A stretch of 64,000 bases of DNA from Nepenthes gracilis (Eukaryota; Streptophyta; Magnoliopsida; Caryophyllales; Nepenthaceae). Positions 2,845 through 60,165 of the stretch are shown one piece after another. Below the pieces are notes generated by a model. It did no database searches and was not told where the DNA came from. It saw only the letters and a program-made list of their open reading frames with translations. The translations under genes and the position numbers were made by a program. The stretch lies in NCBI GenBank assembly GCA_033239525.1, contig BSYO01000014.1, forward strand, positions 12,136,021 to 12,200,020, written 5' to 3'. Position 1 is the stretch's first letter. Each line of letters opens with the position of its first letter.

Positions 2845-2881
2845 GTGGTTTTTCCTTCTCAATCACGAGAAGGTTTTCCAC
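2845..2881 (+). other. Bipartite hairpin in T1 LTR
   Basis: GTGG (2845-2848) can pair with CCAC (2878-2881). Inside a TTTTT/TTTT internal loop, CCTTCTC (2854-2860) pairs perfectly with GAGAAGG (2867-2873) around a 6-nt loop. The same architecture with different stem bases occurs in the Copia LTRs (4029-4063), T3 LTRs (34200-34236) and the solo LTR near 59343. Confidence 0.6.
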
Positions 2882-2999
2882 ATAAAAACTCTCTGTGTAT
2901 CCATCCGTGCACTCTCTCTCCCCCCTCTCCACCTGGGTATTATTTGGTGTTACTGTTGGATCCTCGTCCTTATTAGAGTAAGGATCCGAAGACGCAACA

Positions 3000-3512
3000 A
3001 ATATAATAAAATATATTAATTCTATCTTATAATTCAAATCTTTTAAATTATGTCATGAAAAGACATTAGAAGCATCCCATGACAAAGTGCTCTAGCTACT
3101 TGCCCACCTCTATTTTTAGTGTTTATTTTATCTTTATTTTTGTCCCCCTTCCCATTATGCTGAGAGCATTGCATATTTTCTTTGAAATGAAACAGAAAGC
3201 GTTCACTCAAGGAAATAAATATAGAAAAATCTTTTTTTTTTCTTTTTTTGGTAAATAGGAGAAAATCATAACACAAGAAGATGAGCCTGGAAGGTTTGCC
3301 AGATTGGAGTCCTAACTTTTGTGAAATGTCAGAGAAATTGACTGGTACTCAATTTTTACCCACAAAAGCTATGATGAGACTGGTACTCAAGTCAAGCATA
3401 AATTCTTGAGAGTCACATATCAATTACTCTATTCTTAACCCTTCAATGGTATACTACCCTATCACGATATTTGGAGATTTTATAATTGTTAGATTATAAA
3501 GTAGATCGATCA
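3000..3512. repeat. Duplicated host sequence, copy A, left part
   Basis: This segment matches about 56765-57315 closely from its first bases (aatataataaaatatatta) to the Copia insertion site; by eye it is around 90% identical, with indels near 3230 and 3330. The right part resumes at 8855. In copy B a 116-codon ORF spans the region matching 3350-3512; here that frame is broken. Not a recognised transposon. Confidence 0.75.
3508..3512. other. Copia target-site duplication, left
   Basis: GATCA directly precedes the 5' LTR and is repeated directly after the 3' LTR at 8850-8854. Copy B at about 57313 has the single, unoccupied site (agatcaatcactatag). Confidence 0.9.
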
Positions 3513-4188
3513 TGTTGAGGTCACTCCCGAGTGGCTTATGTCCGCGGACTCCAATGGAGAATGGACGAGGACTTTGTTTGAGGCGTCATCACCGAGAGGA
3601 CTTGGACGAGGACTCCATCCACGCGTGCGTTGACTTATTCTCTCATTAATGATCTACGACAGCAATAAATGAGGACAGGCTACTGGTGCAGCCTGATTGG
3701 AAGTTGGTGGCGGCCACAACTTCCAAGGTGTTGCAGGCCTGCCAGGCAACATGCCCAGCCACCCTAGGCGCTAGGGTGGCTAGGTAGCCTCCTAGGCTGG
3801 TGAATATATATATTTATTTACATGTATATATATATGTAGAGATCATTTAATGGGCACTAGAGAGAGAGGTTGGTGAGTTGTGGTGTGTGCCTTTGTGAGC
3901 AACCACTTTGTGAGACTTGTGAGAGAAACACTTTAGTGAGAGAAAGTTGTACACTTGAGATTGTTTTTCTTTAGTTTGAGCTTATGTAGCTAACACTTGT
4001 AAACAATCCTTTAATAATGTATTCTTTCGTGGTTTTTCCCTTGCTTATAGAAGGGTTTTCCACGTTAAACTCGTGTGTTCCCTCTCATATTTTCTCTCTC
4101 TACCTCTCTTGTCCGTCCGAGAGCCTTTGCTCTCTGTTCCTGTCCGAGCGTTGTGTCCGCTCGGCCTTTCACGCGTTTTGCTCCAACA
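3513..4188 (+). repeat. Copia 5' LTR
   Basis: Starts TGTTGAGG and ends TCCAACA. It contains AT-rich TATA-like tracts at about 3803-3837 and a bipartite hairpin at 4029-4063. The primer-binding site follows 2 bp after its end. Confidence 0.92.
4029..4063 (+). other. Bipartite hairpin in Copia LTR
   Basis: GTGG, TTTTT, CCCTT (4038-4042), loop GCTTATAG, AAGGG (4051-4055), TTTT, CCAC. Inner stem, U-rich internal loop and outer stem match T1's layout, while the inner stem bases differ in a pairing-preserving way. The 3' LTR carries the same structure around 8699-8716. Confidence 0.6.
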
Positions 4189-4190
4189 AG

Positions 4191-4202
4191 TGGTATCAAA
4201 GC
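4191..4202 (+). other. Copia primer-binding site
   Basis: TGGTATCAAAGC, 2 bp after the LTR, matches the usual initiator-Met-tRNA complementary site (TGGTATCAGAGC) of plant Copia elements except for one base. Confidence 0.85.
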
Positions 4203-4205
4203 AAG

Positions 4206-5747
4206 ATGGTTTGTTTGAACGGTTCAAACTTTGACATCTGGCAGAGCAAAATGTCTGACTTGCTTTTCGTCAAGTCTATGCACGATCCGGTCTTCACCTC
4301 CGAAAAACCGTCGTCGAAAACGGACGAGGTCTGGGCGTTGGAGCACAAACAGGTGTGCGGGTTCATCCGGCAGTTTGTGGACGAGAACGTGTACAACCAT
4401 GTTCGTAGGGAGACAAATGCCAAAGCCCTTTGGGAGAAGCTGGAGAAGCTCTTTGCCTCCAAATCTGGTAACAATAAAATTTACCATTTGATGCGGTTGG
4501 TCCATATCCGGTACAAGGACGGATCTTCTGTTGCCGACCACTTAAACGAGTTTGAGGGATGCGTGGACCGGCTCAACAGTATGGGCATTAAGTTCGAGGA
4601 CGAAGTGCTAGGACTTTGGCTCCTAGCAACCCTCCCGGACTCATGGGAAACCATGAGGGCCACAATCGCCAACACAGCTCCGAACAGTGTGGTGACACTG
4701 GAGACGGTGAAGGGAGCTGTGCTGAACGAGGAAGTACGACGGCTTTCTCAGGGTATGTCTGCCTCTCAGCAGCCCGAGGTCCTTGTCACGGAATCAAGGG
4801 GAAGAAGCCGAGGACGTGGCCCAAAGTCTGAAGACAAAGGGCGGAGTAAGTCACATTCTCGGTACCAAGATATGGAGTGCCATCATTGTGGCAAGAAGGG
4901 CGACATCAAAAAGTTCTGCTACAAATGGAAGCGTGAGAACGCTGGGAAGCAGAAGGGCGAAAAGAGACGTGGCGAGGAAGAGTCCTCGGTCTCTGTTGTG
5001 ACAGGAGAAGATCTCCTCTTAACCTGTGAGTCCGAGGCCTTGATGGCTGTGGCAGAGCAGTTCTCGGATTGGGCAGTGGACTCTGGCGCTTCAGTCCATG
5101 TTACCTCCAGGAGAGAACTGTTCTCCACTTATGCTCCTTGTGCCCCAGGAGTACTGAGAATGGGCAATAAGCAGACGTCCGAGTTCATCGGACGAGGAGA
5201 TATCACGTTGGTGATGAGTACTGGAGCCCGGTTGACTTTGAAGGACGTCCGACACGTCCCTGACATCAGGCTAAACATCATCTCAGTTGGGCGACTGGAT
5301 GATGAAGGTTACTGCAGCGTCTTCTGTGACGGTAGTATCAAAATGACCAAGGGCTCCATGGTCATTACCCGAGGAACTAAGGCATCTGGCCTTTATATCT
5401 TGAAGGCCCAGGCTGAAGTAGCTGAGGTGAATGCCACCAGGAGTGCGGAGTCCTCGGATCTCTGGCACAAGAGGCTCGGACACATGAGTGAGCGTGCCAT
5501 GGGTCACTTGGCCAGGAAGGGTCTCATCCCTGAGGTGGATGGAGACATGCCTAGGACGTGTCCTCACTGCATGGCGGGGAAACAAAGAAGAGTCTCCTTC
5601 TCCGGAGACGTAACTTCTAAGAAGTCCGAGATCTTGGAGCTTGTACACACGGACGTGTGGCCCTCTCCCGGAGAAGTCTTTTGGAGGTGCACAGCGATTT
5701 GTGACCTTCATAGACGATTGCTCGAGGAAGTCAGGTGTTTCCATTGA
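4206..5747 (+). pseudogene. Copia gag, protease and start of integrase
   Basis: The chosen start is the ATG at 4206 just after the primer site; the open frame extends upstream only through LTR sequence. Residues ~1-240 are a Copia gag (NFDIWQSKM, LWEKLEKLF, HLNEFEGCVDRL). A CCHC zinc knuckle follows (CHHCGKKGDIKKFC), in which the usual His is Asp. The aspartic protease has an intact WAVDSGASVHV active site. The pre-integrase domain reads LWHKRLGHMSERA and CPHCMAGKQRR. The frame is lost near 5665-5680, just after HTDVW, so the integrase core continues in another frame (FVTFIDDCSRKSG) and then shifts again at about 5735. The product would be a truncated gag-protease. Confidence 0.85.
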
Positions 5748-6733
5748 AGACCAAGGACCAGGTCGCGGAAACTTTTCAACAGTTCCACGTCCTTGTTGAG
5801 CGGGAGACCGGGAGGAGACTAAAGGTAATAAGGAGCGACAACGGTGGTGAGTACATTAGACGGTTTGATACTTACTGCAGAGCTCATGGTATCAAACATC
5901 AGAAGACTCCACCAAAGACGCCACAGTTGAACGGAGTGGCCGAGACGATGAACCGCACCCTCATGGAAAGGGTTAGGTGCATGCTGTCTAAGGCAAGGCT
6001 GCGAGGATCTTTTTGGGCCGAGGCCTTGAGGACGGCCGCCCATGTTATTAACTGCTCGCCTGAGAAGCCTCTCGCACGGAAAGTTCCTGAGCTGATTTGG
6101 ACCGGGAAAGAACCATCATACAGTCATCTGCGGACTTTTGGCTGCAAGGCCTTTGTCCATGTTTCGAGAGATGAGAGAACCAAACTGGAGCCAAAGACAC
6201 TACAATGTGTTTTTCTGGGCTATGGTGAGGAAGAATTTGGGTACAGACTTTATGACCCAAAAACAAAGAAGCTGGTTCGTTCCTGCGACGTGGTCTTCGT
6301 TGAGGACGAGACCATAGAGGACGTTGGGAAAGATGTGAAGTCTCTTTCCAGTACCTCCCGGACGGACACAGTTGAGATTGAAATTGTCCGTCCTGTACCT
6401 CTTGTATCCGATGTCCTCGGATTAAGGGTAACTGCCAACTAGGATCAGGCGAGTACAGCGCCTCAGGATCAGGTTGAAGATGTGGTACCTCAGCAGGGTG
6501 AGGTAGCCCAAGTGAGACGGTCGTCCAGAGTGAGACGTCCGTCCGTCCGCCTTCCAGCCAGTGAGTTTGTCCTCCTCACTGATGCTGGAGAACCAGAGGA
6601 CTTCGAAGAGGCCATGAGCAGTGCTGAGAAGGATAAATGGTTTGAAGCCATGGAGGAAGAAATGACTTCCCTTCATGAGAACCATACGTTTCAGTTGGCG
6701 GAATTGCCTAAGGGAAGAAGGCTCGAAAAATAA
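5735..6733 (+). pseudogene. Copia integrase core and linker
   Basis: Frame 2 from about 5735 gives the integrase core: SDNGGEY (second catalytic Asp) and NGVAETMNRTL (catalytic Glu). The C-terminal GKEPSYSHLRTFGCKAFVHV and FLGYGEEEFGYRLYDP follow. The first catalytic Asp lies before the frame break, in VHTDVW. A TAG at 6440-6442 interrupts the frame, which then resumes (VRRSSRVRRP, then the start of the RT region AMSSAEKDKWFEAMEEEM) to a second stop at 6733. These breaks separate integrase from reverse transcriptase. Confidence 0.82.
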
Positions 6734-7548
6734 ATGGGTCTTCAGTCAAGGCGACCGAGGACCCGAGCGCCCCCAGACACAAGGCAAGACTTGTGGTCAA
6801 GGGATTTGGTCAACGAAAGGGTGTTGACTTTGATGAAATTTTTGTGCCCGTTGTGAAGATGTCCTCGGTCCGTGTAGTGCTCAGACTGGTAGCAGCGTTG
6901 GACCTGGAGGTTGAGCAACTAGATGTCCGGACGGCCTTTCTCCATGGAGGTCTAGAGGAAGAGATCTACATGGAGCAACCAGACGGTTTTGAAGTTAAAG
7001 GAAAGGAGGGACTTGTTTGTCGTTTGAAGAAGAGCTTGTATGGGCTGAAACAAGCTCCGAGACAGTGGTACCGAAAGTTCGAGTCTGTTATGGTCAAGCA
7101 AGGTTACCATAAGACCTCCTCGGACCACTGTGTCTTTGTGCAGAAGTTCTCGGACAACGATTTCGTCATCCTTCTCCTTTATGTGGACGACATGCTGGTT
7201 GTCGGACAGAATAGTACTCGGATCATGGAGCTGAAGAAGCAACTGGGACAGTCTTTCGCCATGAAAGACCTCGGACCGGCGAAACAGATTTTGGGAATCA
7301 GGATTTCTCGCAACCGAGAGGGCAAGAAGCTTTGGCTGTCCCAGGAGGGTTCTATTGAAAAGGTGCTTCAAAGATTCCATATGGAAGGGTCCAAGCCTCA
7401 CAAGACCCCACCGCCACCATTTGCATCGAGTAGCAGGTGTCCGTCCTCGGACATTGAGAAGGCGCGCATGAGTAAGGTTCCTTACTCCTCGGCCGTTGGC
7501 AGTCTTATGTACGCGGCCGGACATTGCTCATGCGGTTGGCCTTGTTAG
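6734..7548 (+). pseudogene. Copia reverse transcriptase
   Basis: After a frameshift near 6724, frame 1 carries the RVT_2 domain: ARLVVKGFGQRKGVDFDEIFVPV, QLDVRTAFLHGGLEEEIYMEQP, SLYGLKQAPRQWYRKF and the catalytic LLLYVDDMLVVG (residues YVDD intact). It continues with KQILGIRISR and LSQEGSIEKVLQRF. The frame is lost at about 7510 inside SSAVGSLMYA, so the C-terminal RNase H is in yet another frame. Confidence 0.85.
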
Positions 7549-8135
7549 CAGATTTCTCTCAAACCCAGGGATGGAGCATTGGTCTGCGGTGAAGTGGATC
7601 TTCAGATATTTATGCGGGACCTCCAAGGTGGGTTTGATGTTTGGAGAAGAGAAGCCTCAGTTAATTGCGTACACGGACGCAGATATGGCCGGGGACGTTG
7701 ATTCTAGGAAATCAACGTCCGGATACTTGGTGAAATTTATGGGGGGCGGTCTCCGGCAGTCTGGGTTACGAGTGCGTCGCTCTCTCGACCACAGAAGCAG
7801 AGTTCATTGCCATGACCGAGGCCTGCAAGAAAATGCTATGGATGAAGAGGTTCGTCCAAGAATTGGGTCTAAGGCAAGAGGCGTACAAGATCCTTTGTGA
7901 TAGTCAGAGTGCCATTCACTTGTGTAAGAACTCCTCATTCCATTCTCGGTCAAAGCACATTGATGTGCGATATCTTTAGGTGAGAGATGTTTTTGATGAT
8001 GGGCAGCTATCAATTGGAAAGGTCCGCTCGGACGATAATGGGTCAGACATGATGACCAATGTTTTGCCAAAGGGGAAGCTGGAAGCTTGTTGTGACATTG
8101 TTGGTCTAACCGACTTTACTCCCACTCGGTCGTGA
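7505..8135 (+). pseudogene. Copia RNase H
   Basis: CTRPDIAHAVGLVSRF, then YTDADMAGDVDSRKSTSGYL (first catalytic Asp region) lie in frame 2 up to about 7745, where a G-run (GGGGGGC) coincides with a frameshift. The continuation (ALSTTEAEFIAMTEA, CDSQSAIHL, SKHIDVRY) is in a different frame and reaches a TAG near 7978. Translation in frame would end at the TGA at 8133-8135. Confidence 0.8.
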
Positions 8136-8144
8136 GGGGAAGTT
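8134..8144 (+). other. Copia polypurine tract
   Basis: GAGGGGAAGTT immediately before the 3' LTR start TGTTGAGG. Confidence 0.8.
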
Positions 8145-8849
8145 TGTTGAGGTCACTCCCGAGTGGCTTATGTCCGCGGACTCCAATGGAGAATGGACGA
8201 GGACTTTGTTTGAGGCGTCATCACCGAGAGGACTTGGACGAGGACTCCATCCACGCGTGCGTTGACTTATTCTCTCATTAATGATCTACGGCAGCAATAA
8301 ATGAGGACAGGCTACTAGTGCAGCCTGATTGGAAGTTGGTGGCGGCCACAACTTCCAAGGTGTTGCAGGCCTGCCAGACGTGCGCCTGGCAGGCGGCCTG
8401 ACAGGCAGCATGCCCAGCCACCCTAGGCGCTAGGGTGGCTGGGTAGCCTCCTAGGCTGGTGAATATATATATTTATTTACATGTATATATATATATGTAG
8501 AGATCATTTAATGGGCACTAGAGAGAGAGGTTGGTGAGTTGTGGTGTGTGCCTTTGTGAGCAACCACTTTGTGAGACTTGTGAGAGAAACACTTTAGTGA
8601 GAGAAAGTTGTACACTTGATATTGTTTTTCTTTAGTTTGAGCTTATGTAGCCAACACTTGTAAACAATCCTTTTATAGTGTATTCTTTCGTGGTTTTTCC
8701 CTTGCTTATAGAAGGGTTTTCCACGTTAAACTCGTGTGTTCCCTCTCATATTTTCTCTCTCTACCTCTCTCGTCCGTCCGAGAGCCTTTGCTCTCTGTTC
8801 CTGTCCGAGCGTTGTGTCTGCTCGGCCTTCCGCGCGTTTTGCTCCAACA
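8145..8849 (+). repeat. Copia 3' LTR
   Basis: 705 bp, starting TGTTGAGG and ending CTCCAACA. It is longer than the 5' LTR mainly because of an insertion around 8376-8405 (a GCCTGGCAGGCGG-like partial duplication of neighbouring sequence) and one extra TA step. Otherwise there are about 11 substitutions. Confidence 0.92.
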
Positions 8850-9205: not shown

Positions 9206-10430
9206 ACCAGTAGTACAAGTGTGGTGAATTCAAGAGCTGTGCTAACGGCCTATGATCTATCCAAATGAACGAGTGAAAGAATTTTTGGGTGATTGGTTCC
9301 ATCGTATCAAAAAATTATTTGAAGTGATCAATTATTTGAAGGAGGATAAAATGAAACTCACTTTGTACAAACGGGACAGAGAAGCCAACCATTGGTAGGT
9401 AATGAAAAAAGAGGATTTTGGGATTGGAGAATGAATAGATTCCGTGGAACGTAATTTTGGAGACGTTTCTAAACAAGTATTAGGAGTCTTCAGGTATAAA
9501 AGCAAGATGAATTTGCTTATTTGCGGCAAGAAAATCGAACAGTGGTAGAGTGTGACGTCAAGTTAACTAAATGAACTCATTCTATTCCACATGTAGTTAT
9601 AGACGAGACAAGAAAAATGAGGAAATTTTTGCAATGGTCAAATGACGTGATTTGAAAACCGTTGGTTACATTGATATTGAGGACATATAGTGAAATTCTT
9701 TATCGGGCCGTACTATATGAGTAGGAGTTAGAGAAAAAAAATCCAAAAAGAAAAGTGCAAGTCAATGAGGTCAAAGTTTGGAATCGTGAGGATCTCACAA
9801 GAGATTGAAGTCTCATAATAAGGGGACACGAATGGGGGTTAAACTCCAAAGCGGATTAGGAAAGCAACAACAATTGAAACCGGTGTACCCATATTGTGGT
9901 AAATTCTATGGATGAAGGCTATTTTATAAGCATTCTGGAGTATGCTTCAATTGCGGCTAATCTGTCTATATGATCAAAGACTTGGCCTAACCCTTGAGGC
10001 AAACAACTAAAAAAACAAATGCTTTAGGGAGAATTTTTACAGTAATAGCCAAGGATATAAATATATCTCCTTCAGTAGTGGAATATAAGCTTGCAACTTT
10101 TCAAAGTTCAACACATATGCTGTTGGAGTCGAGCTCTACATATCCATTTATATCCCCTAAGTTTGTATGTCATTTGCATTCACCGCCTAGCATTATGTAT
10201 TATTTGTTAGTGGTGTCTACGCCCATAGGTTTGCATTTAATAACTAATATTATATACCTTACGAGTATAGTTTCGGTGCATGGGTTTAAGTTGGAGATAG
10301 ATTTGATTATGTTGAGCATGCACCATTTTGATATAATCTTATACATAGATTGGTTAGTAAACTATCATGCCAGTATGACTATTTTTATAAGAGATTGTAC
10401 TTTTTAATTCAGGGTTGTGCGCCTTTCTAT
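9206..10430 (+). pseudogene. G1: gag-protease remnant of a Tekay/Del-like gypsy element
   Basis: Fragments of gag are readable across many stops: LFEVINYLKEDKMKL, then a region aligning with the EFLYLRQG/TVAEYEAKF part of Tekay gag. A zinc-knuckle remnant lies at about 9893-9960. A 137-codon open stretch at 9994-10407 is the retroviral-type aspartic protease: VVSTPIGLHLITNIIY and MHHFDIILYIDWL match the family's VVSTP, TDVVYPGC and DFDVILGMDWL blocks. The active-site DSGATHSF is ESSSTYPF here, so catalytic Asp and Gly are gone. No RT or integrase follows. Confidence 0.7.
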
Positions 10431-12779
10431 TTTTAAGGAAATTGACTGAATCTTAATCGTCATGATACATTTTCAATCTCACAAGTGTACGAGAATTCGG
10501 TATAAGTTTTTGGTAAATTGGGTATTATATTTATAAGAAGTTGATTTTTAATATAAAATAAATTTTGTAACTATTTTATATTTTAAAAATATTAACAGAG
10601 AATTAAAATATTAAGTTAGTCATAATTGAGATAATCATAATAGCTATGGTTTGGAAATAAATTTACTAAAAGATATAAAATATTAAATAATAAATTTTAA
10701 AATTGTTGAAAATTTAAATACTTATGGTGACTATGTTGTCCGACAGCGATATAAATTAAAGTGTAGAAACTTAAAATATAAAAATATAAAATTAAAAGAG
10801 TAGTGGTGGCTCAATTATTGAAAGCTTAGAATAAAAAAAAAGGTAATAAATAAAGTATGAGAACTAAATAACATAAATATAAAATTATAAAAGTTATAGT
10901 AACTCAACTATCTAAGACTCAGAGAATAAAAAGATTAAAAATAAAATATAGAAAATTAAACAATAGAAATATAAAATTGTTAGATGACTTTAATGGTTAG
11001 TCATAATGTGTTAATTTTCATAGTACAATGCAACATAGAATTGTAAAGCTCTAATAACAATGCGAAATCAAACTAACCAGTGAGAATAAAAGACGAATGA
11101 AATGAAACTAATAAAGCCGAGTTGATCTGAAAATAAATTTTATATTAAACTAAGATTTACAGATATGAAATGATTGATCTAAACAGAATCTACTATACTA
11201 AATATTAAATTTGTGGAACAAAAACTAACACACTAAACATCTACCAAAACTTTCCCCTCTTTGTTTTTTTCTCTCCTCCCGCTCATCTATCCGCGCACCC
11301 TCTCTGTTTTTCTCTTCTACTCTCCTTCCTCTGCTTCCTGCACAGCTCGCTCTCTATTTTTCACTCTTCCGTTTGCTTCATGCCATACTACCGCTCTTTT
11401 TTTAAATTATCCCACAGAGATTTAAAACTTACACATGATAGTCATTCATACATTAGCCAAAATATCATTGTTTGATACATGCTTATTGGGCACTCGTATG
11501 ATTGAGCATCACTTGGTCGACACACGTATGCCAATATATTAAAAATAGACCCTTTGAGCGATTTTGTCTCATTCTTGTAAATCTTTTAAAAAATAGAGAA
11601 AAAGAGAGAGATGTAGAGTGAGAAGGAAGGAGACGGCAATCTAAGTTGATTTTAAGTAGAATCCAAATTTTTCTGAAATCTCTAAGTACTTCTTATTCAA
11701 ATATTCATACATATGATATTTGTTTACTTCTCTTGATAATATTATGCATGCATGTTAATTTGCTTTCCATTTTTTGAAATTTTTAAAAGTTTATATCTTA
11801 AATATATCATGTTGAAATCCTAAAATCTTTATAAATATATTCTTGTATATTATTTATTTGCTGATAAGCTAATGAAAACTCTACTCTAATTTTTGATGAA
11901 ACAATTTGGTTCTACAATTTTAAGAAAATATTTGTATATTTGCATTTCTATATAGAATTTTCTATTTTAACTAAATAAGGAGTGTTATAAAAAATTCACG
12001 AAATATATTTGGATATATCATAATATATTATTTATAAATTAAAGGTGAAGATAATATTCATTGATAAAAAAAATAACATTTGTCCCCAACTATATTAAAT
12101 ACTATATAATTAATCTACCCATGATTCACAAATAATGACGTATAAACTACTCGAACTTTGATATTAAACATTTGTTAGCAAAGTCATCATTAATTATTGG
12201 TTCCTATATGTTTGGAAGATTTTTATGTATTTTATATTCTTATATGTTTAGACGATTTTTGCATGTTTTATGTTCTTATGAATGATTTTTGCATGTTGTA
12301 TGTTTTTATGCTTTTACACAATTTTGGCATTTTCAATGTTTATATATTTGTTTATGGCATTCACATGTTTTATCATGGTTTTGACATTATCAACATTTTG
12401 GATTTTGATCATGAATATTGTTCTTTGTATATTCATTCGTTATATCCACATATATAAAATTTATATATACTTTGCTGATTATTAAATTCATTGTTACTAT
12501 AATTTTTTTCTAATCTTTCATATTAGTAGGCACCGATGTATTTGTAGGGATTTTAGATGTCGAAGAGGTTCTTCGGAAGAAAAAGTTGTTATGATATTTT
12601 AGCTATATTTTGATTTTTTAGACTAAGAATTGTAAATTCAATTCTTGGATATTATCTGTATTTTGGCCACAGGCTAAGAATTCTTCTATTTTAATACAAA
12701 GTTGCACATTTTATTGTTGGCTACTGTGATTTTAAGTTAAGATAGTTTTTCTTACTTATGGTTTAAGTGGAATAATTAA
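10431..12779. other. AT-rich interval, probable decayed 5' LTR of G2
   Basis: No gene. It ends just before a degenerate primer site at 12780-12800, so at least its right part is likely the G2 LTR. CT-rich (11250-11400) and GA-rich (11590-11640) stretches are followed by aagtacttcttattc at 11680, which resembles tacttcttatttt at 15793 at a comparable distance before the G3 primer site. The ORFs at 12197-12485 are low-complexity Phe/Met/Ile-rich reading of AT-rich DNA. Confidence 0.45.
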
Positions 12780-12800
12780 CAAGTCTTCAGAGCCACTTCC
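12780..12800 (+). other. Degenerate primer-binding site of G2
   Basis: AAGTCTTCAGAGCCACTTCC resembles the initiator-Met site TGGTATCAGAGCCAC with several changes; it lies about 120 bp before gag-like leader sequence. Confidence 0.45.
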
Positions 12801-14400
12801 GAATGTGAGTTTTAGATCTTGTGTTTGGATATTTATATATTATCAAACTATTACACAGTATTTGTTGTAGAATTGTGTCCCAACATTTTGTTGGGTTTAA
12901 GACGGATAAATAAATATTTATTTATGGATATTAAATTCAATACTGACTAGATGTAATGAAATTTGGGTTTTGGGCTAGGGACGCAACATATAAAGTGTCA
13001 TTAGAGAAAGTCATGAGAAAAATATTTTATTTGATTTGATTAATTAAAATGGTTAATTATATCATAATAGTTACTAAAAAATCAGACATATAAGGTAGTT
13101 CAAACTCTAACCAAAAAAATAAGTATCTTACTATCATGGTAAGAATGGAAAATGTTATGGACTAGAGAGGGTTCAAAGGCGACCGAATTCGGAGCCAATT
13201 GTGGTTAATCAAAGAGCACTACTAATGGCCTATGTTCTATTCACAATGAATGAGTGAAAGAATTTTTGGGCTATTTGGATTGTATCCATTATATCAAAAA
13301 AGTATTTGAAGTGATCAATTATCTGGCGGAGGACAAAGTGTAATTCACTTCATACAAGTTGGATAGAGAAGCTAAACATTGGTAGGCAATTAAAAAGAGG
13401 ATTATGAGATTGAGGAATGAATAAATTCCATGGAACACATTTTTAGAGGCACTTTTAAACAAGTTTTATGAGTCTACAGGTATAAAAGCAAGACGAATTT
13501 GCTCACTTACGGTAAGAAAATCAAACAGTAGTAGAGTATAATGCCAAGTTAACTAAATGAACTCATAATACTCCACATGTAGTCATGTACAAGACAAGGA
13601 AAATGAGAAAATTTATATAATGGTTATTCGAAACAGTTGGTTACATTGATATTGAGGACATATAGTGAAATTCTTGATCGAGCCTCACTGTAAGAGTAGG
13701 AGCTAGAGAGTGAATGTTTTCAAAGAGAAAAGTGCAAGTCAAGGAGGTTATAGTTTGAAATCGTCAGGATTTCATTAGAGGTTGAAGTCTCATAATAATG
13801 GGACAAGAATAGGGGCTGAACTCCAAGGCGCATTGGGAAAGCAACAACAATTAAGGCCTGTGTATTCATATTGTGGTAAATTCCATAGAAGAAGGCTATA
13901 TTATAAACAGTCAGAAGTATACTTCAATTGCAACTAATCTGGCTATATAATCAAACACTATCCCTAACCCTTAAGGCAAACAAGTAAAAAAACAAATGCT
14001 TTGGAGAGAGTTTTTGCTGTAACAACCAAAGATACTGATAAATCTCTTTCAGTGGTGGAAGATGAGCTTACAATTTTTCAGACTACAACACATATGCTAT
14101 TGGAATCGAGCACTGCATATTTATTTATATCCCCTAAGTTTGTATGCTATTTGTACGGACCACCTAACATTATGGATTATTCATTAGTGGTGTCTATACT
14201 TATAGGTACGTATTTAATCACTAATATTATAGACCTAGGTGTATAGTTTGGGTGCATGGGTTTTCGTTGGTGATAGATTTGATTATGTTGGGCATTCACG
14301 ATTTTGATATAGTTTTAGGTGTGTATTGGTTAGTTTGCTATCATACCAGTATGACCATTCCTACAAGAAAGTGTACTTTCTAATTCAAGGTTGTGCGCAT
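12801..14400 (+). pseudogene. G2: gag-protease remnant of a Tekay/Del-like gypsy element
   Basis: The leader and gag are closely related to G1; for example KVFEVINYLAEDK-like sequence near 13300 and the same TNEL/RKQKK blocks near 13500. A CCHC remnant lies near 13870-13945. The protease is partly open at 14001-14246 (RVFAVTTKDTDKSLSVVED, then LVVSILIGTYLITNIIDLG) and continues out of frame to about 14380. As in G1 the active-site Asp is lost (LLESSTAYLF) and no RT follows, so G1 and G2 probably descend from the same truncated form. Confidence 0.7.
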
Positions 14401-20350: not shown

Positions 20351-22769
20351 TATAATGTTTGAGTTTGAATTTTATTTTAATTATAATTAATTAAATTAAG
20401 ATAATTAAAATTAATATTAAAGAAGGAAAAAATTAAGTCAAAAATTAAAATTGGATCGGATTACATCAAATTGATGATACCTGATCGGCACTCAATACTC
20501 ATCCATGATTCGGATGGGCAAAAATGTATTCTAATAAGGATGTTTAGTATAAATTAATAAATTATTTTGATATTTTAGATTATTTCATGTTTGATAGAGG
20601 TCATGAAGATTTGAGTTTTAGAATATTTTATATTCTTGATTGAGAGTCGAAAGATTTATTTTAAATTATTTTCATTTGCAAAATTGTATTTAATTATTAT
20701 TTTATAAATATAAATGCGACTTTTAGTTAATTAATTAAAATAATTTTAGTGTTGGTTTTTTTTTTTGGCTAAGATGATACTTAAGTAGGAAAGAGCTTTA
20801 GATTTGATTAGGATTTAGAGATAAAACAAAATCAATTTTTTAAATTTATAAATTATCTCAAATTTAAAATATTGGATTGGATTCGAAATTTACCCCCGTC
20901 AATCCAATCTAACACATTATCATTCTTATTAGTAGGTTTTAAATGTAGAGCTGCCCAACCCTTATTTGTTTTTTTTCTCAAGTATCTATTTTCAGGTATA
21001 TGTTTTATATGTTTTTTGTTTAATTATATTTAAAAATACATAATTTAATTATTTTTTAAACGCTTTTAGTGATATAATATTTTATATATCTAAATTTATA
21101 TATCTAAATTTACTAATAAACTTATGCAAAGTAGAAATATAAAACCCATATTATTATCTAATATTATTCTATGAACAATTTTAAAATTTTTAAAAATATT
21201 TTTTTTGTTAAAAATCAAACCCCTTATTTGAATAGTAAAAAAATGAATCAATAACGACAACAAACTAACAATAATCATAAATAATGAGATAAATAAAATT
21301 TTTCGTGAAAAATGCTTATTTTTTTGTCAAATGAGAAAAAAACAATCACAGGACTATATATCCAAAATATAGCCTTTTTGTGATATATCCTGTTACAATA
21401 ATTCTAATGAATCCAAATAACAAAAGAGTATAAGATAAAAGAGAATAAATATAATCGATAAAATATTATTTTTAATTTTAAAAATAATATACCCAAAATC
21501 AGTAAAGACAAGTCAGAGCTTAATCGGATATATAAACCTTTCTTTTTTATTTTTTTTCTCTCTTTCTCTTCCTTTTCTCCCCGCGTTAATGCTTAACATA
21601 TCAAAAAATGTAAAGTGTAACTTTAAAAATCACATTAGGATGCTTTAAAACAAAAATAGTGCTCAAGTGCAATCAGACTGGCATAAGACGCAAGCCCATA
21701 GTGCAATTAACACACAAGCGTCAAATGGGTATATTTCAGATACTGAGCAATCTAGACGAATTTCACTTGAGTATCCCTTGGGTGCCTCCGATCCGGATGA
21801 TGTATGCATGTGTGCCCCTCGAGCGTCCCTAATCTAAACAATCGGTGCACATGTGTGAATTAGACACCACTTGTGCGTCATTTAATAACTTTTGTTGATC
21901 GAACTAAGAAACATGCATGATTGTATATCCTATTAAATAATTCATTAAATAAATATAAAATTTATAAAAAAAATGACATATAATTTACTATTTGTTTTAT
22001 AACTTTTACAGTATAAAATTGAGTCAATTTCAACGTCAGCATTTTAATGACTTTGTTTATTCGTTTTCGGTGTCGAGTCAATGAGAAAGCTCCCCGCTGG
22101 ATCTTGCCCTATCAACAATAATGGTACTTTTTCTTTCGTATTGTTTTTGACACATTAATAATATAAATTTTCTTTTAATCATTTAAAATATCAAAATTTA
22201 TTATCTTTATAACAATTATGATATACTTTTATAACATAAAAATTAAATTTAAAATAATATATTAAAAAATTATTATGAATAAAAATAATAAATAAAATAT
22301 TATATTATAAAAAATTATTTTAATAAGCTTGAAAATGTAATTCCTAATTCGACCTTATATGATATCTTAAATGCATATTATAATAATTATACATGAAGGA
22401 CAGTACTGAAGTTGGTGCAAGAAATTGAATCCCCAATGTGAAAATGGTCGTTGGTGTAATTGCTCTTATTTTTATTTTTTGGTAATATAAAAATAATAAT
22501 TTTTTAATTTTTTAATATTAAAATATTATATTATTAAAAAATAAAAATAAAATTATTATCATATTTCTCTTTTCGGCTAAAATTTTTTGAAGGTTGAGTT
22601 TACATATATTCAAGCTTAGCTTAAATTGATTCTTTTTTTAAATAAATAAATTTAAGTCGACTTTATTTTTTTAGATGAAACTCAATGAAAAATTTTCAAA
22701 CTTGAGCTTGTCTCATAAATTGATTTCTTTATCTATAGAGCCGAGTCAAGTTTAAAATCGAGTGTACGT
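20351..22769. other. AT-rich interval, possible G3 3' LTR
   Basis: Follows the G3 purine tract and so probably starts with the 3' LTR (tgtttgagtttg at about 20355). No counterpart of clear identity was found on the 5' side by eye. There is no gene. A CT-rich run at 21540-21585 and a GC-richer patch at 21660-21880 are the only compositional features. Confidence 0.35.
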
Positions 22770-33551: not shown

Positions 33552-36500
33552 CTTTCCCAAATGACAAAAAATTGAAAATAATAATAAGTGTCAGTAACTA
33601 GATGTTCCAAAAATTGAGGTTAAGCTCTACAATAATATTAAGTAAGGTCGCCGTATTACCATACATAGATTATTGGGGCTAATGTATTTATTATTATTAT
33701 TTTTTTATCATATTAGTATTTTGATATTTTAAATTTTTTTAAAAAAATATTAAATAAAATTAAGTATATACAAAGTGTGTATAATCATTGGCCTGGCAAT
33801 TACTAAAATTTTATTATCAATTATTTCTTAACATAATATTAGGAAATTTTTTACCAAATGGTTATAAGTTTAATTTTTCCAGAATTTTCTTCTAATCATC
33901 CCTTGGTTTAGTCAGCATTTGTTTACGGAAAATGTATTATATATGCAATTTTTATGAAGAATATAATAGGAAAAATTATATTTTTTTTCTAAGTATGTTA
34001 CTATTTTTAGATGAATATTATCTAAAAAATATGAATTATCATATAAATCGATCAATAATATTGCATATCAATTTGTGATTATATCACTTTTAGATTGTTG
34101 CGTTCTGGATCCGCGGGGTCCAATCGGATCCGTGGTTTCCAGACAACACGAGTGTTTGAAGTGTTGGGTGCAAGAGGGGGATTAAGACCGGATTTTTACG
34201 TGAGAAACCTTCTCGTGAATGGGGAGGAAAAACCACGAGACTCAGGGCCTTTAAAAATACTTCACTATTTGGGTGAAAGTCTTTACAAAATACAAGTGTT
34301 AGGGTTAATCCCTTCCTTATCTCTTATTTTGTATCTCTTCCCTAGGGGATATCGCTCACTGGAAGGTTTTATCACTTTCGTGGAAAGCTTTTTCTCTCTC
34401 TTTTGTTCCACTGGGAAGAGAGGATCAGGTGGCCGAGAGGTAGTGGGCATTTTTCCTTCCTTTTGGAGCAAGTTTTTGGGGGAGAAAATTTGGTCCTTTA
34501 GAAAAGGACTTAACTGGGCATTTATAGAAGAGATCATGCCATTGGGAGAAGACACGTGGCAGCCATTGGGTAGTCGATCAGTTGTGCAGTGTCTCACTGG
34601 CCTCATTTAATGTTGCTGACGTGCGGGGGATGGCACGCGGCTAGTGCCGCTGGTAGGCCTAGGTGTGTCAGTCATGTAGGGTCTAGGCGTCAGTCTTAAT
34701 TTGACCAGGCGTGCCTTGTTTTGACCACGATTGACAGTGGCTACAGGTTTCCTTGGGAATTGACGACGTTGCCTAGCTGGCATCATCGGCCAATCATAGG
34801 GCAGTCCTCGTTCTTAGGTGGGGCCCCCTTGTGAATTTGCGGACCCACAAGGGGGGGCAGTTCTCGGGGGATCCCCTGGGGAAAAGCCCTGGAGTCTCTT
34901 CTTGACTTCCCGGACGGTTCTGAGACTCGGCAGGACTTCTAGGGTTCTCAGTCTTTTCGGTGTCCGTGTATTCGAGTATCGTTGGCGATATCCTCGAGCT
35001 TTCTTACGAGCGGACGGGACCTCTTGGACTTCTGCGGTAGTCTTGGTCTTTTGGCCGCCGTCCTCTACTTTGGGCCTCTCAGGCTGTTCAGTTTTCTCGG
35101 CTCGTGGGAGCCTCTCGTTTGGGCCTTTCTCCTGGGCTGCGCTTTTATGGGCCCTTATGTTGGGGCCCAACATAGCCCCCCATGCCAAAGGGCCCGAGAT
35201 TCTTGACCGTTTGGCATGAGGTCACCGGTCTTCTAGAAGAGTTGGTTGCTTCCTGCTCGATTTTAGGTGCGCGCGTTTTCAACTTGATATGGACATTCCT
35301 GGACGGGCCAGAGCACGACAACCTGCGTTCTGGGTTAGGTCCTTCATAGTGACCATCCGAGTACGTGCGCCCTTGGGGTGAGTGCGGTGTTGAGTTTGAT
35401 GGGAGGCGGTCCCAGGGCTTCTTCTGGGTCTGAGACCTTTCCAGCGTCGCCGTTTTCGGGCTTCTTGGATGCATTAAATGCTGAAGTGACACGGCGGACA
35501 GCGCCTTTGGAAGGAAAGGCCATCACCTTTCTGCAACGAATGGCCGGGCGACGCGTGGCAAGGGTAATGAGCGCACTTTTTTGAATTCCAAGGTTATTTA
35601 AACGCCTCCTTGCTCCGACTTTCCACCTTCGCGTCTGCTTTTCTCCTTCTCCTCTTAAGTGTTGAGGCTTTCCGTCCTTTCTTCGTTCGAGTTTCTTCTT
35701 CATTTTCTTATTTTTCGGCGTTCATGGCGCCTGGGGTGAGACAGATTGCCTCCACGGTGACGCTCGACAAGCTCACAGAGATTCAAGCTCTATATCGAAT
35801 CCCTGAGTCCACATCCATGATGATTCTGGTGTCACATGATAGGACATTGTATCCTCAAGACGGCTTCATTACCGTTTATGAAGTCCACCTCAAAGGCGGG
35901 CTACCGTTTCCCATCGCGGAGGTGTTTTACGATATTATGAGGGCACTTGGAGTGCCCCTTGCCAGACTTCAGCCAAATGCGGTGAGGTATTTGGTATCCT
36001 TGTGCGTCTTCTTCCAGTGTCATAAGGGGCTCTTGAATGCCCTTACGGTCAAGGTGATGTTTCGATTTACACAGAACCTTGACTGGATTATAATGACTCC
36101 CTGCCTGGACTTTTCTTTGTTGTGCGGGGGTAACCCAGATTCCACGAAATGCTGGAAGAATAAGTTCTTCTTTCTTGGCGTTCACGAGCATTGGGCCGTT
36201 CCCTTTAAGTGGGGGAAGGTGGCTATCCAGTATAGCTCTGACCCTTCGAAGGAGGACAGGGAGAATGTGAAGGAGTTCACGGACTTGGTGCTGGCCAATC
36301 AGGGGAGCTTTCACCTGAACAAGCGCAACATCTGGCTGTCCCCCGAGAAGTTCGAGGAAGCCAAGTGGGGACCGCGGGCTAAGGCTTCGCCGCCAGCTTC
36401 TCCCAAGAAGTCCAAGAAGAGACTGAGGAGGAGAGCTGGGACACTGAGGATCGGGGGTCCCGCAACCGCCTGGGTGAAAACTTCCTTACAGAGAGCTCTG

Positions 36501-55360: not shown

Positions 55361-55365
55361 GGGGT

Positions 55366-56764
55366 CTTTTTTTTTTTTTTAATTTACTCTGGCCAGACAG
55401 TTAGAATATAATTCCACCGAAAGAAAATTCAACACAGAATTTTAATTTCACGCAATTTACATGTCATTAGCACAACTATTTTTAGATATATTATTTAATT
55501 AGGTCACTGCCTACGTCACAATATACTAACGTGTCAATATTTTAACAATTTCAATTTACAAAATTAAATTAATATAAATAAATAAATATTAAAATATCTG
55601 TGCTAACAGACGTAATTTCAACATTTTATTTTTCACAGAATTTGCCGCAACGAAAAATATTTTTAAAATGTTATTTTGTTTCCTTAACATATTTAATTTT
55701 TATTTTTTCTTCTTATTTTTATTCTCAAATTTATATTTCAATACCAAGTTTATTCTAAAAAGAAAAAAAATATTAAAAATTTGATTAAACACGTCAAAAT
55801 TGATAATTCATTTTAAACTTTTATCTCTCTATATTTTACTAATATCACTTGCCAAGAAGCATTCGATTCGAAATAAAGCCAATTTAATTAATTTTTTTTT
55901 GTTATAAAAAGAAATAATTCGAAAAGAATAAAATCTATGAAAAAGATATTCATAAGCATTTTTTTTCTATTTCTGTTTCATGACACTTGCGATTCTTATT
56001 TCTATTATTGAAACACATTGATTTGACCTACCTAGAATAATTTAAAATAGTAATAAGTTAAAGTTAAATGACTTCAAGACACACAACAATAAGAGAGTGG
56101 CCACGCCCCGACAAAGTCCACCAGCTAAAAGCACTGTACGGAAATAGGCAATGACTTCAATGCATTTTCTCCATCAGTCTAGCAATCTAACTGATATGGC
56201 AAAAACAGCTAATCAATTGGAGAACGGAGACGTGAAATATTAAACCCTACACTTAGACCTAAGTAGCCGGGCTCTCCGTTTTGCCATTGTGGAAGAAAGC
56301 GGGGTAAAAACATCTACTAGTTGAGAATATGCTTAGGTAAAAAATTAACTATTTTACAAGTCACTTAGCACTTTTCAGAGGAAAAATCCTTTTATAATGA
56401 AGGTAGGAAATCAATCAGAGGCTAAAAAGTGGATAAAATTTTTCCTTATTTTGAATTATTGGTTGATGAGTCATTTTACCTTACCTTGTAGCCACAATGA
56501 GAGACCAAAGGCCTACTATTTCACCAAATGAAGAATAGAAGAAGAATGTTTAAATTGAACTTATCTATAAGAAAATTTCAAGTAAATAAAGAATGATTAA
56601 ATTCTCTGCAAATGAGTTATTTAATTTTCATGAATTATTTAATTTTACGTTCTTACCTAATCTCATAGTATATCAAGGATGATGTATTGCAACGAATATA
56701 TATATAGATTGATCTTATAATGATAACAATAATAATTTCATTTCAAGAATTTAGATAACTAAAA
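55366..56764. other. AT-rich host sequence
   Basis: 1.4 kb without a credible gene. A T-run (55366-55382) abuts the T4 end. Nothing else recognised. Confidence 0.6.
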
Positions 56765-57675
56765 TTATAATAATATAATAAAATATATTAAACCTATCTC
56801 ATAATTCAAATCTTTTAAATTATGTCATGAAAAGGCATTAAAAGCATCCCATGACAAAGTGCTCTAGTTACTTGCCCACCTCTATTTTTAGTGTTTTTTT
56901 TAATCTTTATTTTTATCCCCTTTCCCGTTATGTTGAGAGCATTGCATTTCAAGTGAAAACATTAAGCATTCACTCAAGGAAATAAATATAGAAAATTCTT
57001 TCCTATTTTTTTGTTAAGTAGAGAAAAATCATAACACAAGAAGACGAGACTGAAAAGTTAGCTAGATAGGAGTCCTAACTTTTGTGAAATGTCAAAGAAA
57101 TTGAATGAAGGATTCGGATTTTTTCCAAAGTTTTTTGACACTTGATAGAGACGGTTTCCATTTTTACGTACAAAAGCTATGATGAGACCGGTACTCGAAC
57201 CAAGCACAAATTCAATAGAGTTACGTATCAATTGCTCTATTCTCACCCTTCAATGGTATGCTACCCTATCACAATATATGGAAATTTTATAATTGTTAGA
57301 TTATCAAGTAGATCAATCACTATAGCCGTGAATAGCATGTCTCCGCCGGTGACAATAATGAAGAAATACATAAAAGTGCTTTATGAAGATGAATATAAAG
57401 AAGATTGGTTAAAAGGTACTAGAAAAACAGCCATTGTAGTTAGAAAACGCCGAAATGGTGACTACGTCGTCCCCAAAGCTTTGCTCATTTGATGAATTTT
57501 CTTTACAAGAACCGGGATTGTTGTTGGTGAGTTATCAGCTAAGCATAGTTGGATGGCCTATCTGGAGCATCTTCTTGGTCATATCCATCCCGAATGCATT
57601 GTCTGATGGACTGATCCAAGCAACAAAATGAAACAAAACTATCAAAAGGATCATTCATCAAGCAATTCAAACTTG
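56765..57675. repeat. Duplicated host sequence, copy B (unoccupied)
   Basis: Uninterrupted counterpart of 3000-3512 plus 8855-9205. It preserves the pre-insertion sequence at the Copia site (about 57309-57320) and reads through the T1 LTR boundary. Similarity ends near 57675. Confidence 0.78.
57142..57492 (+). CDS. Unrecognised 116-codon ORF in duplicate copy B
   Basis: Open from 57142 to 57492 (MIETVSIFTYKSYDETG...RRNGDYVVPKALLI). Lys/Arg/Asp-rich near the end (MKKYIKVLYEDEYKEDWLKG). The frame is broken in copy A, so it may be an exon or relic of an older gene that survives only here. No family recognised, no promoter or splice context identified; it could be chance. Confidence 0.25.
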   Translation: MIETVSIFTYKSYDETGTRTKHKFNRVTYQLLYSHPSMVCYPITIYGNFIIVRLSSRSITIAVNSMSPPVTIMKKYIKVLYEDEYKEDWLKGTRKTAIVVRKRRNGDYVVPKALLI

Positions 57676-58160
57676 TAGACCACTTACTATTTTCTGAGTA
57701 AGTATCAAGTAAATTGGATGTATTGTTTCTCTAGAAAAAACAAGCAACACTCGGGACTAATTTGAAGATCATTAGCTCAATGAGTAAAACCTAAGCATGA
57801 CTGGACTTGACTGTTTTAGACTTATAAAAAGCTCGACTAAGCTTATTTATGAGCTCATAAATAAACTCTTGAACAAACTCACTTATAAACTCGAAAATAG
57901 ATCTATTTAAGAACTAATAATAAACGTAATTATGAGCTTGGGAACACGTCCAGATTTAGCTCGGCACGGCTTGTTGGCAGTCATATGCAAAATAAGGACT
58001 AATACCAAGCTTAAACATCAAGAAACTTGAAAAGAAATCTATCAGACAGAACTCTAATTACAGTTTTAGTACTTGTTGACTAATCAAGATGATTATTGCC
58101 AATTGAGAACTACCATTAAGTTTTGCTCGTTAATATATCCATACACTGAGTGCACATATG
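57676..58160. other. Non-coding host sequence
   Basis: No gene or repeat recognised. Confidence 0.5.
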
Positions 58161-58430
58161 TACCATGATTACCCCCACGACTCAGGGACGAAAGATTAAA
58201 TCCATGATTACAAATTATTTCCTAATAATACACACAAATTTACTTAGTATATAATCTCTATGAATGTCATATAACCAAAATTTGCACCGCATGATTACCC
58301 AGCAACTTAGGAATGAAAGGTTAAATCCATGTTCACAAATCAAATTCCTATTAATGCGCATATAAATTTACATAGTATATGGTCTCTATGAGTAAGGTTA
58401 TATAATCAAAGTTTGCACTGCATCATTATA
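58161..58430. repeat. 126-bp tandem repeat, about two copies
   Basis: catgattaccc at 58164 and 58290 start two related units sharing gattaaatccatg, aatttac.tagtatat and tctctatga blocks; a third start (gcatcattat) follows at about 58421. Confidence 0.75.
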
Positions 58431-59244
58431 CTAAATACAGAGGTGGGAAGGAGATTATTGGTCCTTAGAGAGACTCCTTGCACATAATGGATATATGCAG
58501 TATGATTATTCATCATGTGTCACAATATGATTTTTATAGGTGCAAAACTATATTACACATCCATTTCTATTGGAACCTGGATGCTAATCAAGTTAACCCT
58601 TGAACACATTTAAGTATGAAGGTTAATCTCGAGATGTAATGACGTATAAGCAATCAATGTCGAGTTTACAAGCAAAAGTGAATTGGTAATTGAAGGTGTG
58701 AAAACATAATAAAGTAAGCAATTAAATTGCAGCAAATAATAATTAAAAAGGAAGAAGGATTTCTTGAATTCAACCCCCATATGGAGCATTTTAGACCTTT
58801 TTGTCTTTAGGCAGTAATATATATTAAAAAGTCATAACTTTTACAATAGGTATCTAATTCTTCAACAATACTCAAATTCAAACTAAATTTACCTAAATTC
58901 TTAAAAATTTCAAAAATATAAGAAAAAAATGGGTAAAAATATTTACAAAAGTTCGGTTTAGATTCTAACACCTTACACAAGCAAAAACCAAAGCCAACCG
59001 TAACCTACAATATATGGATAGATATACATACACTCAGCCTTGTGGGACAAAAGGCTTTGTAGTTGTTGTGTTTACATGTTATGCATACACCATCATAACA
59101 AGTATTTTCCGATGCTGCCTTTCCACTTAATATTGTTGGTAAACAAATAAAACACATCGTGCTTAGACCGACAACAATTGGAAAGGCAGATTGATTTGAA
59201 CAAGAAATTTCTAAAATTTAGGGATGCATATCTGCCCATTGTCT
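58431..59244. other. Non-coding host sequence
   Basis: About 0.8 kb, AT-rich, no gene recognised. Confidence 0.5.
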
Positions 59245-60165
59245 TGTTGGAGGCAAAAGGCCGATCGGATAGAATAATATAATGTTACACACAGTGAAAG
59301 AGAAGAAAAAGAAGAAACACATACAAGTTTTATATGAAAAACCCTTCACAACCGAAGGAAAAATTACGGAATACAAAATCCACTGCAAGTCCACTATGAG
59401 AAAAATTGGTTACAAACTCCCAAGATAGAGTATCCGCAACACACTCGAGAATAACAGAGAAAAAAACCTCTACAGAGCAAACAAGAAAACACTCCTCCGT
59501 TTTCACTCTCTATTTTTCTCTCTTCTTCCTCACTGGTGGTACACTTCTCTCCTTCTCTTTTTACATTTGGATCTCACACTCTACACACCCCCCAACAAGT
59601 CCGCCTACTTGCTTTTAAATATGGAAGCCCATATTCAGCAAATCCAATGAATATTCCATATCCGCTTATAAAATCTGTCCTTACCAACAATATAAATATA
59701 CTTTGTATAAAAATGACTTCGGTAAAGCTGTTTGAGATCATGTACGCTGAGAAGATCTGCTGAGTTGGCACTCTTACTCAGAAAATCTCCTTTGGCCCAT
59801 TGGTCGCCCGTGCACTCCGTCCGAGTGCTCCGTTGGCCGTCCGCCCATTTTCCTCCTTGGCCTCCTCAGGCCGGTCAACTCATTGGCCAGCCATCCTACA
59901 CATATGGGCATCCAGGCAAAATGGCCAACCTTTTATCTACCGGTCAACAAAGTTGACCGGCTTCTACTCTCCAGAAAGGTACTCCAATATTTTCCACTCT
60001 AAAAATACTCCTCGCCAGTCATTCTCCAGTTGACCGTCTTCAGTTCTCCGCCGGTCATCCTCCCGTTGACCGGATTCTTCTCTCGGATTTGCTCTCCACC
60101 AAATGAATTCCATCATTTGTTCTCCACAAATCTTTCGATGACAAAAGTTATTTGTTAAGTCATCC
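59245..60165 (-). repeat. Probable solo or truncated Copia-type LTR
   Basis: Read on the minus strand the sequence ends GCCTCCAACA at 59245. About 100 bp before that end it has the GAAGGGTTTTTCA/TAAAACTTG block and hairpin (59343-59358) seen in the Copia and T1 LTRs. No primer site, purine tract or coding region adjoins it. The far boundary is not defined; the start of the CACTA element at 60171 limits it. No target duplication was found. Confidence 0.5.
59343..59358 (-). other. Hairpin in the probable solo LTR
   Basis: CCTTC...GAAGG inner stem within T-rich flanks, equivalent to the hairpins at 2854-2873 and 4038-4055. The outer GTGG/CCAC stem is not conserved here. Confidence 0.45.

What the first reader, a model, noticed from the sequence alone, without database searches (positions are those of the whole stretch)
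2845..59365. Bipartite, covarying hairpin shared by four LTR families of two superfamilies
Seen in sequence: T1 LTR (2845-2881), Copia LTRs (4029-4063 and about 8690-8724), T3 LTRs (34200-34236 and about 39878-39914, minus strand) and the probable solo LTR (59343-59358, minus strand). Layout: GTGG, T-run, inner stem, loop, inner stem, T-run, CCAC. Inner stems differ but still pair: CCTTCTC/GAGAAGG, CCCTT/AAGGG, CCTCC/GGAGG, CCTTC/GAAGG. The outer stem is GTGG/CCAC in T1 and Copia, and GTGG/TCAC (one G-U) in T3. It always sits about 100-125 bp before the LTR end. Pairing kept while bases change suggests an RNA structure, perhaps for 3' end formation, packaging or strand transfer. T2 and T4 LTRs lack it.
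Basis: partly seen in the sequence, partly recalled or inferred. Interest (0 to 1): 0.75.

Follow-up and report, generated by a model that had tools for sequence, protein, structure and literature searches.

The report
ENE-like tail-binding hairpin in plant LTRs
Many retrotransposons in this plant-sized genome carry, inside their terminal repeats, a small RNA hairpin with two facing U-runs that looks like the known 'ENE' element, which clasps an RNA's own poly(A) tail and protects it from decay; this is a known kind of element in a slightly unusual place.

Summary
The hairpin is real and not chance. The layout GTGG-U5-CC..stem-loop..GG-U4-CCAC occurs in the window's T1, Copia (both LTRs) and T3 LTRs; one T3 copy is broken and the solo LTR is a weak match. 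In the window's own 752-Mb genome the pattern with free inner arms occurs 1299 times, reversed control 0. In 56 distinct strings of the 100 rows shown, the free inner arms pair in 151 of 168 cells (shuffled mean 118; chance bacterial/viral matches 10 of 36); a second, complete sample gives 159 of 183. On 27 distinct aligned rows 35 cells changed on both sides (shuffled 10.7). The inner stem covaries; the outer arm hardly does. The hairpin sits in Copia LTRs and in gypsy LTRs with a TGGCGCC primer site, downstream of a TATA-like box. A stem-loop with facing U-runs closed by G-C pairs is the anatomy of the ENE, which forms a triple helix with poly(A). ENEs are already reported from plant LTR retrotransposons, one (Evade) shown functional. 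I read this as a new member of that kind, inside the transcribed part of the LTR, so probably at both RNA ends. Poly(A) sites and triplex formation were not tested.

The parts
2250..2999 (+). T1 LTR (gypsy-type, probably the 3' LTR)
   Evidence: starts after polypurine stretch GGCATGGGAGGCTAG, ends GACGCAACA, no primer site after it; blastn to L017 covers 1-750 at 83.5%
2845..2881 (+). T1 hairpin GTGG-T5-CCTTCTC..GAGAAGG-T4-CCAC
3513..4188 (+). Copia 5' LTR, TSD GATCA
   Evidence: element has RVT_2, Retrotran_gag_2, gag_pre-integrs
4029..4063 (+). Copia 5' LTR hairpin, inner stem CCCTT/AAGGG
8145..8849 (+). Copia 3' LTR, TSD GATCA
8690..8724 (+). Copia 3' LTR hairpin, identical to the 5' LTR copy
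34096..35172 (-). T3 3' LTR (gypsy-type)
   Evidence: repeats D3/D5/D16; polypurine stretch GGCATGGGGGGCTA
34200..34236 (-). T3 3' LTR hairpin, inner stem broken by one C-A
   Evidence: 62.6 bits
39774..40852 (-). T3 5' LTR, followed by primer site TTGGCGCCGTCTGTGGGAA
39878..39914 (-). T3 5' LTR hairpin, inner stem CCTCC/GGAGG
59331..59367 (-). probable solo LTR hairpin, weak: inner CCTTC/GAAGG, outer GTAA/TCAT
   Evidence: (25.7 bits)

Best explanation
The hairpin is an ENE (element for nuclear expression): a stem-loop whose internal loop is made of two facing U-runs (5' U5, 3' U4), closed on both sides by G-C pairs. In the retrotransposon RNA the poly(A) tail would enter this loop, pair with one U-run by Watson-Crick and with the other by Hoogsteen pairs (at most 4-5 U-A-U triples), and so be shielded from deadenylation, raising RNA level and transposition. 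It lies in the LTR downstream of the predicted promoter, between a TGTA motif and an A-rich TAAAA stretch that look like far- and near-upstream signals for plant polyadenylation (motif roles recalled), so the tail would be added a few tens of bases 3' of it. Being in the transcribed part of the LTR it should also be present near the 5' end of the RNA. Shown here: anatomy, inner-stem covariation, abundance, position in LTRs of both superfamilies. Inferred: transcription start, poly(A) site, triple helix, stabilisation.
For: [quoted passage not shown] PMC12501189 (sections read): in Evade the U-runs and the G-C pairs next to them were needed for the triplex, and deleting the ENE lowered RNA stability, extrachromosomal DNA and copy number; its introduction says around 200 ENE motifs were found, most from plants and fungi, strongly associated with LTR retrotransposons. 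Here: 1299 exact matches in own genome, 0 reversed. Inner pairs 3-5: 151/168 cells over 56 distinct strings of the 100 rows shown, shuffled 118.1 sd 4.6, max 134 of 2000; all 71 matches of a second pattern, 61 distinct: 159/183, shuffled 129.5 sd 3.8, max 142 of 5000; 12 distinct chance strings 10/36 cells and 0/12 with all three pairs, against 41/56. A6, 27 distinct rows: 35 both-sided changes against 10.7 sd 3.2 and covariation 0.403 against 0.207 sd 0.017 (0/500 each); 6 pairs changed on both sides against 3.4 (2/500); further pair types 14 against 11.8 (16/500); slid structures at most 0.110. Fully Watson-Crick inner arms of seven kinds: CCCCC/GGGGG, CCCCT/AGGGG, CCCTC/GAGGG, CCCTT/AAGGG, CCTCC/GGAGG, CCTTC/GAAGG and CCCAC/GTGGG. 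Copia LTRs (primer site TGGTATC by eye: window Copia, L058, L067, L070, L080) and gypsy LTRs (TGGCGCCGTCTGTGGGAA or a one-base variant: T3, L053, L064, L074) both carry it. TATA-like box 149-291 nt upstream in 10 of 11 copies and TGTA 31-64 nt upstream in 10 of 11 (7 of 8 families by my grouping; background 0.13 per 44 nt).
Against: No RNA data: start and poly(A) sites are guesses from motifs chosen after seeing the sequences. A search for 14 A within 3-32 nt after the hairpin found 0 matches, so no retroposed 3' end maps the site. The outer arm GTGG/CCAC is almost invariant (9 matches with another base at position 2, no convincing compensation); ENE pairing alone does not demand that T-A pair, nor the CGTAAA after it. 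The 3' U-run has four, not five, U in the pattern I searched. One T3 copy and many T1 relatives are decayed; 15 of 56 distinct strings lack one or more of inner pairs 3-5, and in L075 the inner arms do not pair. Rfam has no match at gathering score. T2 and T4 regions lack it. Shuffles do not correct for relatedness, and A6 is fitted to the model's structure.
Confidence: 0.75

Rival explanations
1. A 3'-processing hairpin: it folds away spacer so that far-upstream (TGTA) and near-upstream (TAAAA) signals lie close together, as the folded R region does for polyadenylation in HTLV-1 (recalled). The U-runs would be processing-factor sites, not triplex strands.
For: TGTA 31-64 nt before the hairpin in 10 of 11 copies and an A-rich stretch directly after it; the outer arm and CGTAAA are nearly fixed in sequence, as a protein site would be.
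Against: Does not explain two facing U-runs closed by G-C pairs on both sides, the known ENE core.
Confidence: 0.12
2. A retroviral-type leader signal acting at the 5' end: dimerisation, packaging or strand transfer.
For: The hairpin lies downstream of the TATA-like box, so it should be in the 5' leader too.
Against: Loops vary in sequence and length between families, unlike a kissing-loop signal; the distance to the LTR end and primer site varies from about 86 to 197 nt.
Confidence: 0.05
3. Shared ancestry or exchange of a 60-nt LTR module without present function, or a DNA-level palindromic protein site.
For: Outer arms, U-runs and CGTAAA are nearly identical between Copia and gypsy and are the part of their LTRs that blastn aligns.
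Against: Inner stems changed on both sides in several families while staying paired, unexpected for neutral descent. A DNA palindrome would not be expected to keep T-runs facing T-runs.
Confidence: 0.06

Closest known systems
ENEs of plant and fungal transposable elements (Tycowski, Shu, Steitz 2016, Cell Rep; paper not held, known here from statements in PMC12501189 and PMC12846552 and from recall)
   Same: triple-helix-forming stem-loops with U-rich internal loops; in plant LTR retrotransposons
   Different: whether these same families, or an LTR-internal position, are in that paper's list could not be checked
ENE of Evade (ATCOPIA93), PMC12501189
   Same: Copia element, U-rich internal loops with flanking G-C pairs, near the RNA 3' end
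   Different: Evade has four U-runs in a spacer between ORF and 3' LTR; here two U-runs seen, inside the LTR, so in both LTRs
ENEs of KSHV PAN RNA and MALAT1 (PMC8704770, PMC11411715, passages)
   Different: there in noncoding RNAs; here in retrotransposon LTRs, with a variable inner stem and a fixed outer arm
R-region folding for polyadenylation in HTLV-1 (recalled)
   Same: RNA structure in R near the 3' end
   Different: recalled as a much longer fold without facing U-runs; not checked here

Membership tests
[quoted passage not shown]
ENE | G-C pairs directly next to the U-runs on both sides | tested here: met
   outer closing pair G-C in 22, A-U in 3, G-U in 2 of 27 distinct rows; inner closing pair C-G in 26 of 27. 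T3-39k has A-U and solo no G-C on the outer side
ENE | conserved as structure (compensating changes; my criterion) | tested here: met
   inner stem yes; outer stem nearly invariant
ENE | lies near the RNA 3' end, upstream of the poly(A) tail | tested here: inconclusive
   inside LTR, downstream of a TATA-like box, followed by an A-rich motif; no poly(A) fossil
ENE | binds poly(A) as U-A-U triple helix | not testable with these tools
   needs melting or footprinting
ENE | raises RNA level or half-life | not testable with these tools
   needs reporter or mutant
ENE with four U-runs (as in Evade) | four U-runs in one fold-back | tested here: inconclusive
   58-66-nt folds show one U-loop and the descriptor scan shows one hit per copy, but longer fold-backs were not examined
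Rfam families | score at or above gathering cut-off | tested here: not met
   0 matches in the window; 9 matches at E<=10 in 2700-4200, all below the gathering score

The most novel reading that the evidence does not exclude
Because the ENE is in the transcribed repeat, each genomic RNA carries two copies. The 5' copy could capture the poly(A) tail of the same or a partner RNA, closing the RNA into a loop or linking two RNAs by a U-A-U triple helix, and so promote pairing of the ends for the first strand transfer; the same module would have been kept or swapped across Copia and gypsy for this reason.
Probability: 0.1. Interest if true: 0.8.

Novelty: new member of a known kind. Interest (0 to 1): 0.45.

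Why it matters
In the papers I saw, ENE-mediated tail protection has been shown to aid the mobility of one plant retrotransposon (Evade; PMC12501189, whose authors call ENEs seemingly rare in Arabidopsis). Here one genome holds 1299 exact matches of a compact ENE-like pattern (not all with intact inner arms), and the copies whose LTR end and primer site I could read lie in Copia or gypsy LTRs. If active, tail protection is a common, shared retrotransposon strategy in some plants rather than a curiosity, it predicts which families escape deadenylation, and its place in the LTR makes a 5'-end role directly testable.

Tried and rejected
Rejected: chance (reversed-pattern control 0 against 1299); recent recombination among the window's LTRs; outer-stem covariation as support. 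For the outermost pair (G-C to A-T) I counted by eye 14 ATGG..CCAT among 78 matches (reversed control 35), but both bases sit in CpG contexts and the single change on the other side (ATGG..CCAC) did not complete; only GTGG..CCAT was (71), so I make no claim. About fifty of those 78, by eye, are an unrelated repeat (TCGG..CCCA and variants) whose inner arms do not pair.

Led nowhere: bacterial and viral collections (chance matches only, later used as controls; none); Rfam (17, 31); poly(A) fossil search (103: 0); text search for motif letters (13). Model R1 on 14 bacterial/viral loci gave 16 matches at E<=1, up to 24.8 bits, two of them (L012 3769, L014 5731, 21.3 bits) away from the stretch that picked the locus, so scores under about 25 bits are not evidence. 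T1 relatives L015-L042: 23 of 28 hairpins could be read and show decay of one ancestor without compensation; L019-L021 were put in the wrong orientation, and the script's anchor missed L025 and L032. One search's script misplaced the hairpin end in L065, L066 and L075 and the LTR end of T3; those distances are not used.

Selection: one search used the 56 distinct strings among the 100 rows shown of 1299 matches; one search fetched 20 of those places, chosen by me for different inner arms; one search used 19 of these 20 (L075 left out, its stretch starts inside the hairpin). One search examined 22 strings picked by me from the 60 (reversed control: 1), taking the best of 12 offsets, which is lenient.

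Papers: Tycowski 2016 (asked by two ids) and two other papers are not held. PMC12501189: outline, introduction, first part of Results, Discussion, passages; PMC8704770, PMC11411715, PMC12846552, PMC3601003, PMC11656987: passages only; all others: search listings.
Full report
What was checked. Folding gives outer stem, U-run internal loop, inner stem and loop as the minimum-energy state in those four. The T3 3' LTR copy has a C-A mismatch in the inner stem and folds otherwise; the solo LTR keeps inner stem and U-runs but not the outer arm. A strict descriptor finds 5 hits in 64 kb against 1 hit in 30 shuffled windows together.

Families. Copia is a Copia element by Pfam (RVT_2, Retrotran_gag_2, gag_pre-integrs), with GATCA on both sides. 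T3 has the primer site TTGGCGCCGTCTGTGGGAA after its 5' LTR, and T1, T3 and T4 share the polypurine core GGCATGGGRGGCTA, so T1 and T3 look gypsy-type (lineage name Tat recalled). Two superfamilies stand; 'four families' counts two gypsy-type families of one lineage, one Copia and one weak solo LTR.

Genome scale. The window lies in a 752.5-Mb assembly. The pattern with fixed outer arms, U-runs and CC/GG but free inner arms occurs 1299 times (621 + 678), reversed control 0. The same pattern gave 11 stretches in the prokaryote genome collection (257 billion bases by the tool's description) and 3 in viral contigs, the 3 with one and the same string; of these 12 distinct strings none has all of inner pairs 3-5, and 10 of 36 cells pair. 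In the own genome, over the 56 distinct strings of the 100 rows shown, 151 of 168 cells pair and 41 of 56 strings have all three. A second sample, all 71 matches of GTGG..CCAT (61 distinct), gives 159 of 183 cells. In 20 systematically placed 10-kb stretches plus the window (264 kb), model R1 finds 13 matches at E<=1; the three under about 26 bits (solo, L062, window 21297-21351) are not safe by score alone.

Covariation. On 30 matches (27 distinct rows) aligned to the model, 98.1% of cells pair, 35 are changed on both sides (shuffled 10.7 sd 3.2) and the covariation score is 0.403 (0.207 sd 0.017), none of 500 shuffles as high; 6 pairs changed on both sides (3.4; 2 of 500 as high) and 14 further pair types (11.8; 16 of 500); sliding the partner destroys it. 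The alignment is fitted to the model and rows are related, so these numbers lean towards the structure; the free-arm counts above do not depend on it, though they too ignore relatedness. Within gypsy alone, inner arms CCTTC/GAAGG (T1), CCTCC/GGAGG (T3), CCCTC/GAGGG (L053) and CCCAC/GTGGG (L074) need several both-sided changes. The outer T-A pair does not covary: 9 matches with another base, reversed control 0, most of them mismatched or from a GGAGGTTTT-type repeat. A further 60 matches (reversed control 1) have a purine between the 5' U-run and the inner stem; of 22 strings I examined, 16 pair for 4 or more bases at the best of 12 offsets.

Position. The hairpin is 149-291 nt downstream of a TATA-like box in 10 of 11 copies with upstream sequence (L062 has none; L058 has a further box at 132), TGTA lies 31-64 nt before it in 10 of 11 (not L061), and an A-rich stretch such as GTAAAA or GTTAAA follows. 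It lies about 86 to 197 nt before the LTR end. So it should be in the transcribed part of both LTRs. Whether the poly(A) site is 3' of it is inferred; a fossil search was negative.

Interpretation. Facing U-runs closed by short stems are the ENE core as described in PMC8704770 and PMC11411715 (passages). In Evade, U-runs and adjacent G-C pairs were needed for triplex formation, and ENE deletion cut RNA stability, extrachromosomal DNA and copy number (PMC12501189, sections read). That paper also reports from Tycowski et al. 2016 that around 200 ENE motifs are known, most from plants and fungi and strongly associated with LTR retrotransposons. So the kind and even the type of host are known. What differs from Evade is one U-loop seen rather than two, position inside the LTR and so in both LTRs, a near-invariant outer arm with CGTAAA, and presence in both superfamilies as the part of the LTRs that blastn aligns. 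I could not check whether the 2016 list already holds these families; in the text searches no title or abstract start listed describes an LTR-internal ENE.

Verdict. Real, structured, widespread; most likely an ENE acting on the poly(A) tail (0.75). The unexplained residue is the fixed outer arm and CGTAAA, and what, if anything, the 5' copy does.

Noticed in passing
G000 (own genome), 60 matches: Further hairpin families with an A or G between the 5' U-run and the inner stem (for example CCCC/GGGG, TCCCT/AGGGA, TCCTTC/GAAGGA arms), same outer arm and CCACGT.
   Followed up: partly
G000, about 50 of 78 matches (by eye): A repeat TCGGTTTTTCC..GGTTTTCCCA in many copies, four of them spaced about 5.18 kb apart on C14, whose inner arms do not pair; unrelated to the hairpin.
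   Followed up: no
window 38145-38644: Tandem array with copies 58 bp apart in the T3 internal region.
   Followed up: no
window 35571-36569 (+): 332-aa open frame inside T3 on the strand opposite to its LTRs, no Pfam match; of the T3 interior only this frame and 36383-37252 were scanned, so whether T3 is non-autonomous is open.
   Followed up: partly
window 3990-8100: The Copia element's reading frame lies in several pieces (3990-5747, 5714-6442, 6712-7548, 7472-7900).
   Followed up: no
window 9291-14398: Pairs of diverged direct repeats about 3.98 kb apart (82-84% alike).
   Followed up: no
L062 7466-7530: Weak hairpin match followed directly by a run of A (CCACGTAAAAAAAAAAAA); could be a retroposed 3' end or A-run expansion.
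   Followed up: no
L071: A second, inverted hairpin copy (34.9 bits) lies just beyond the LTR end, a nested or neighbouring LTR.
   Followed up: no
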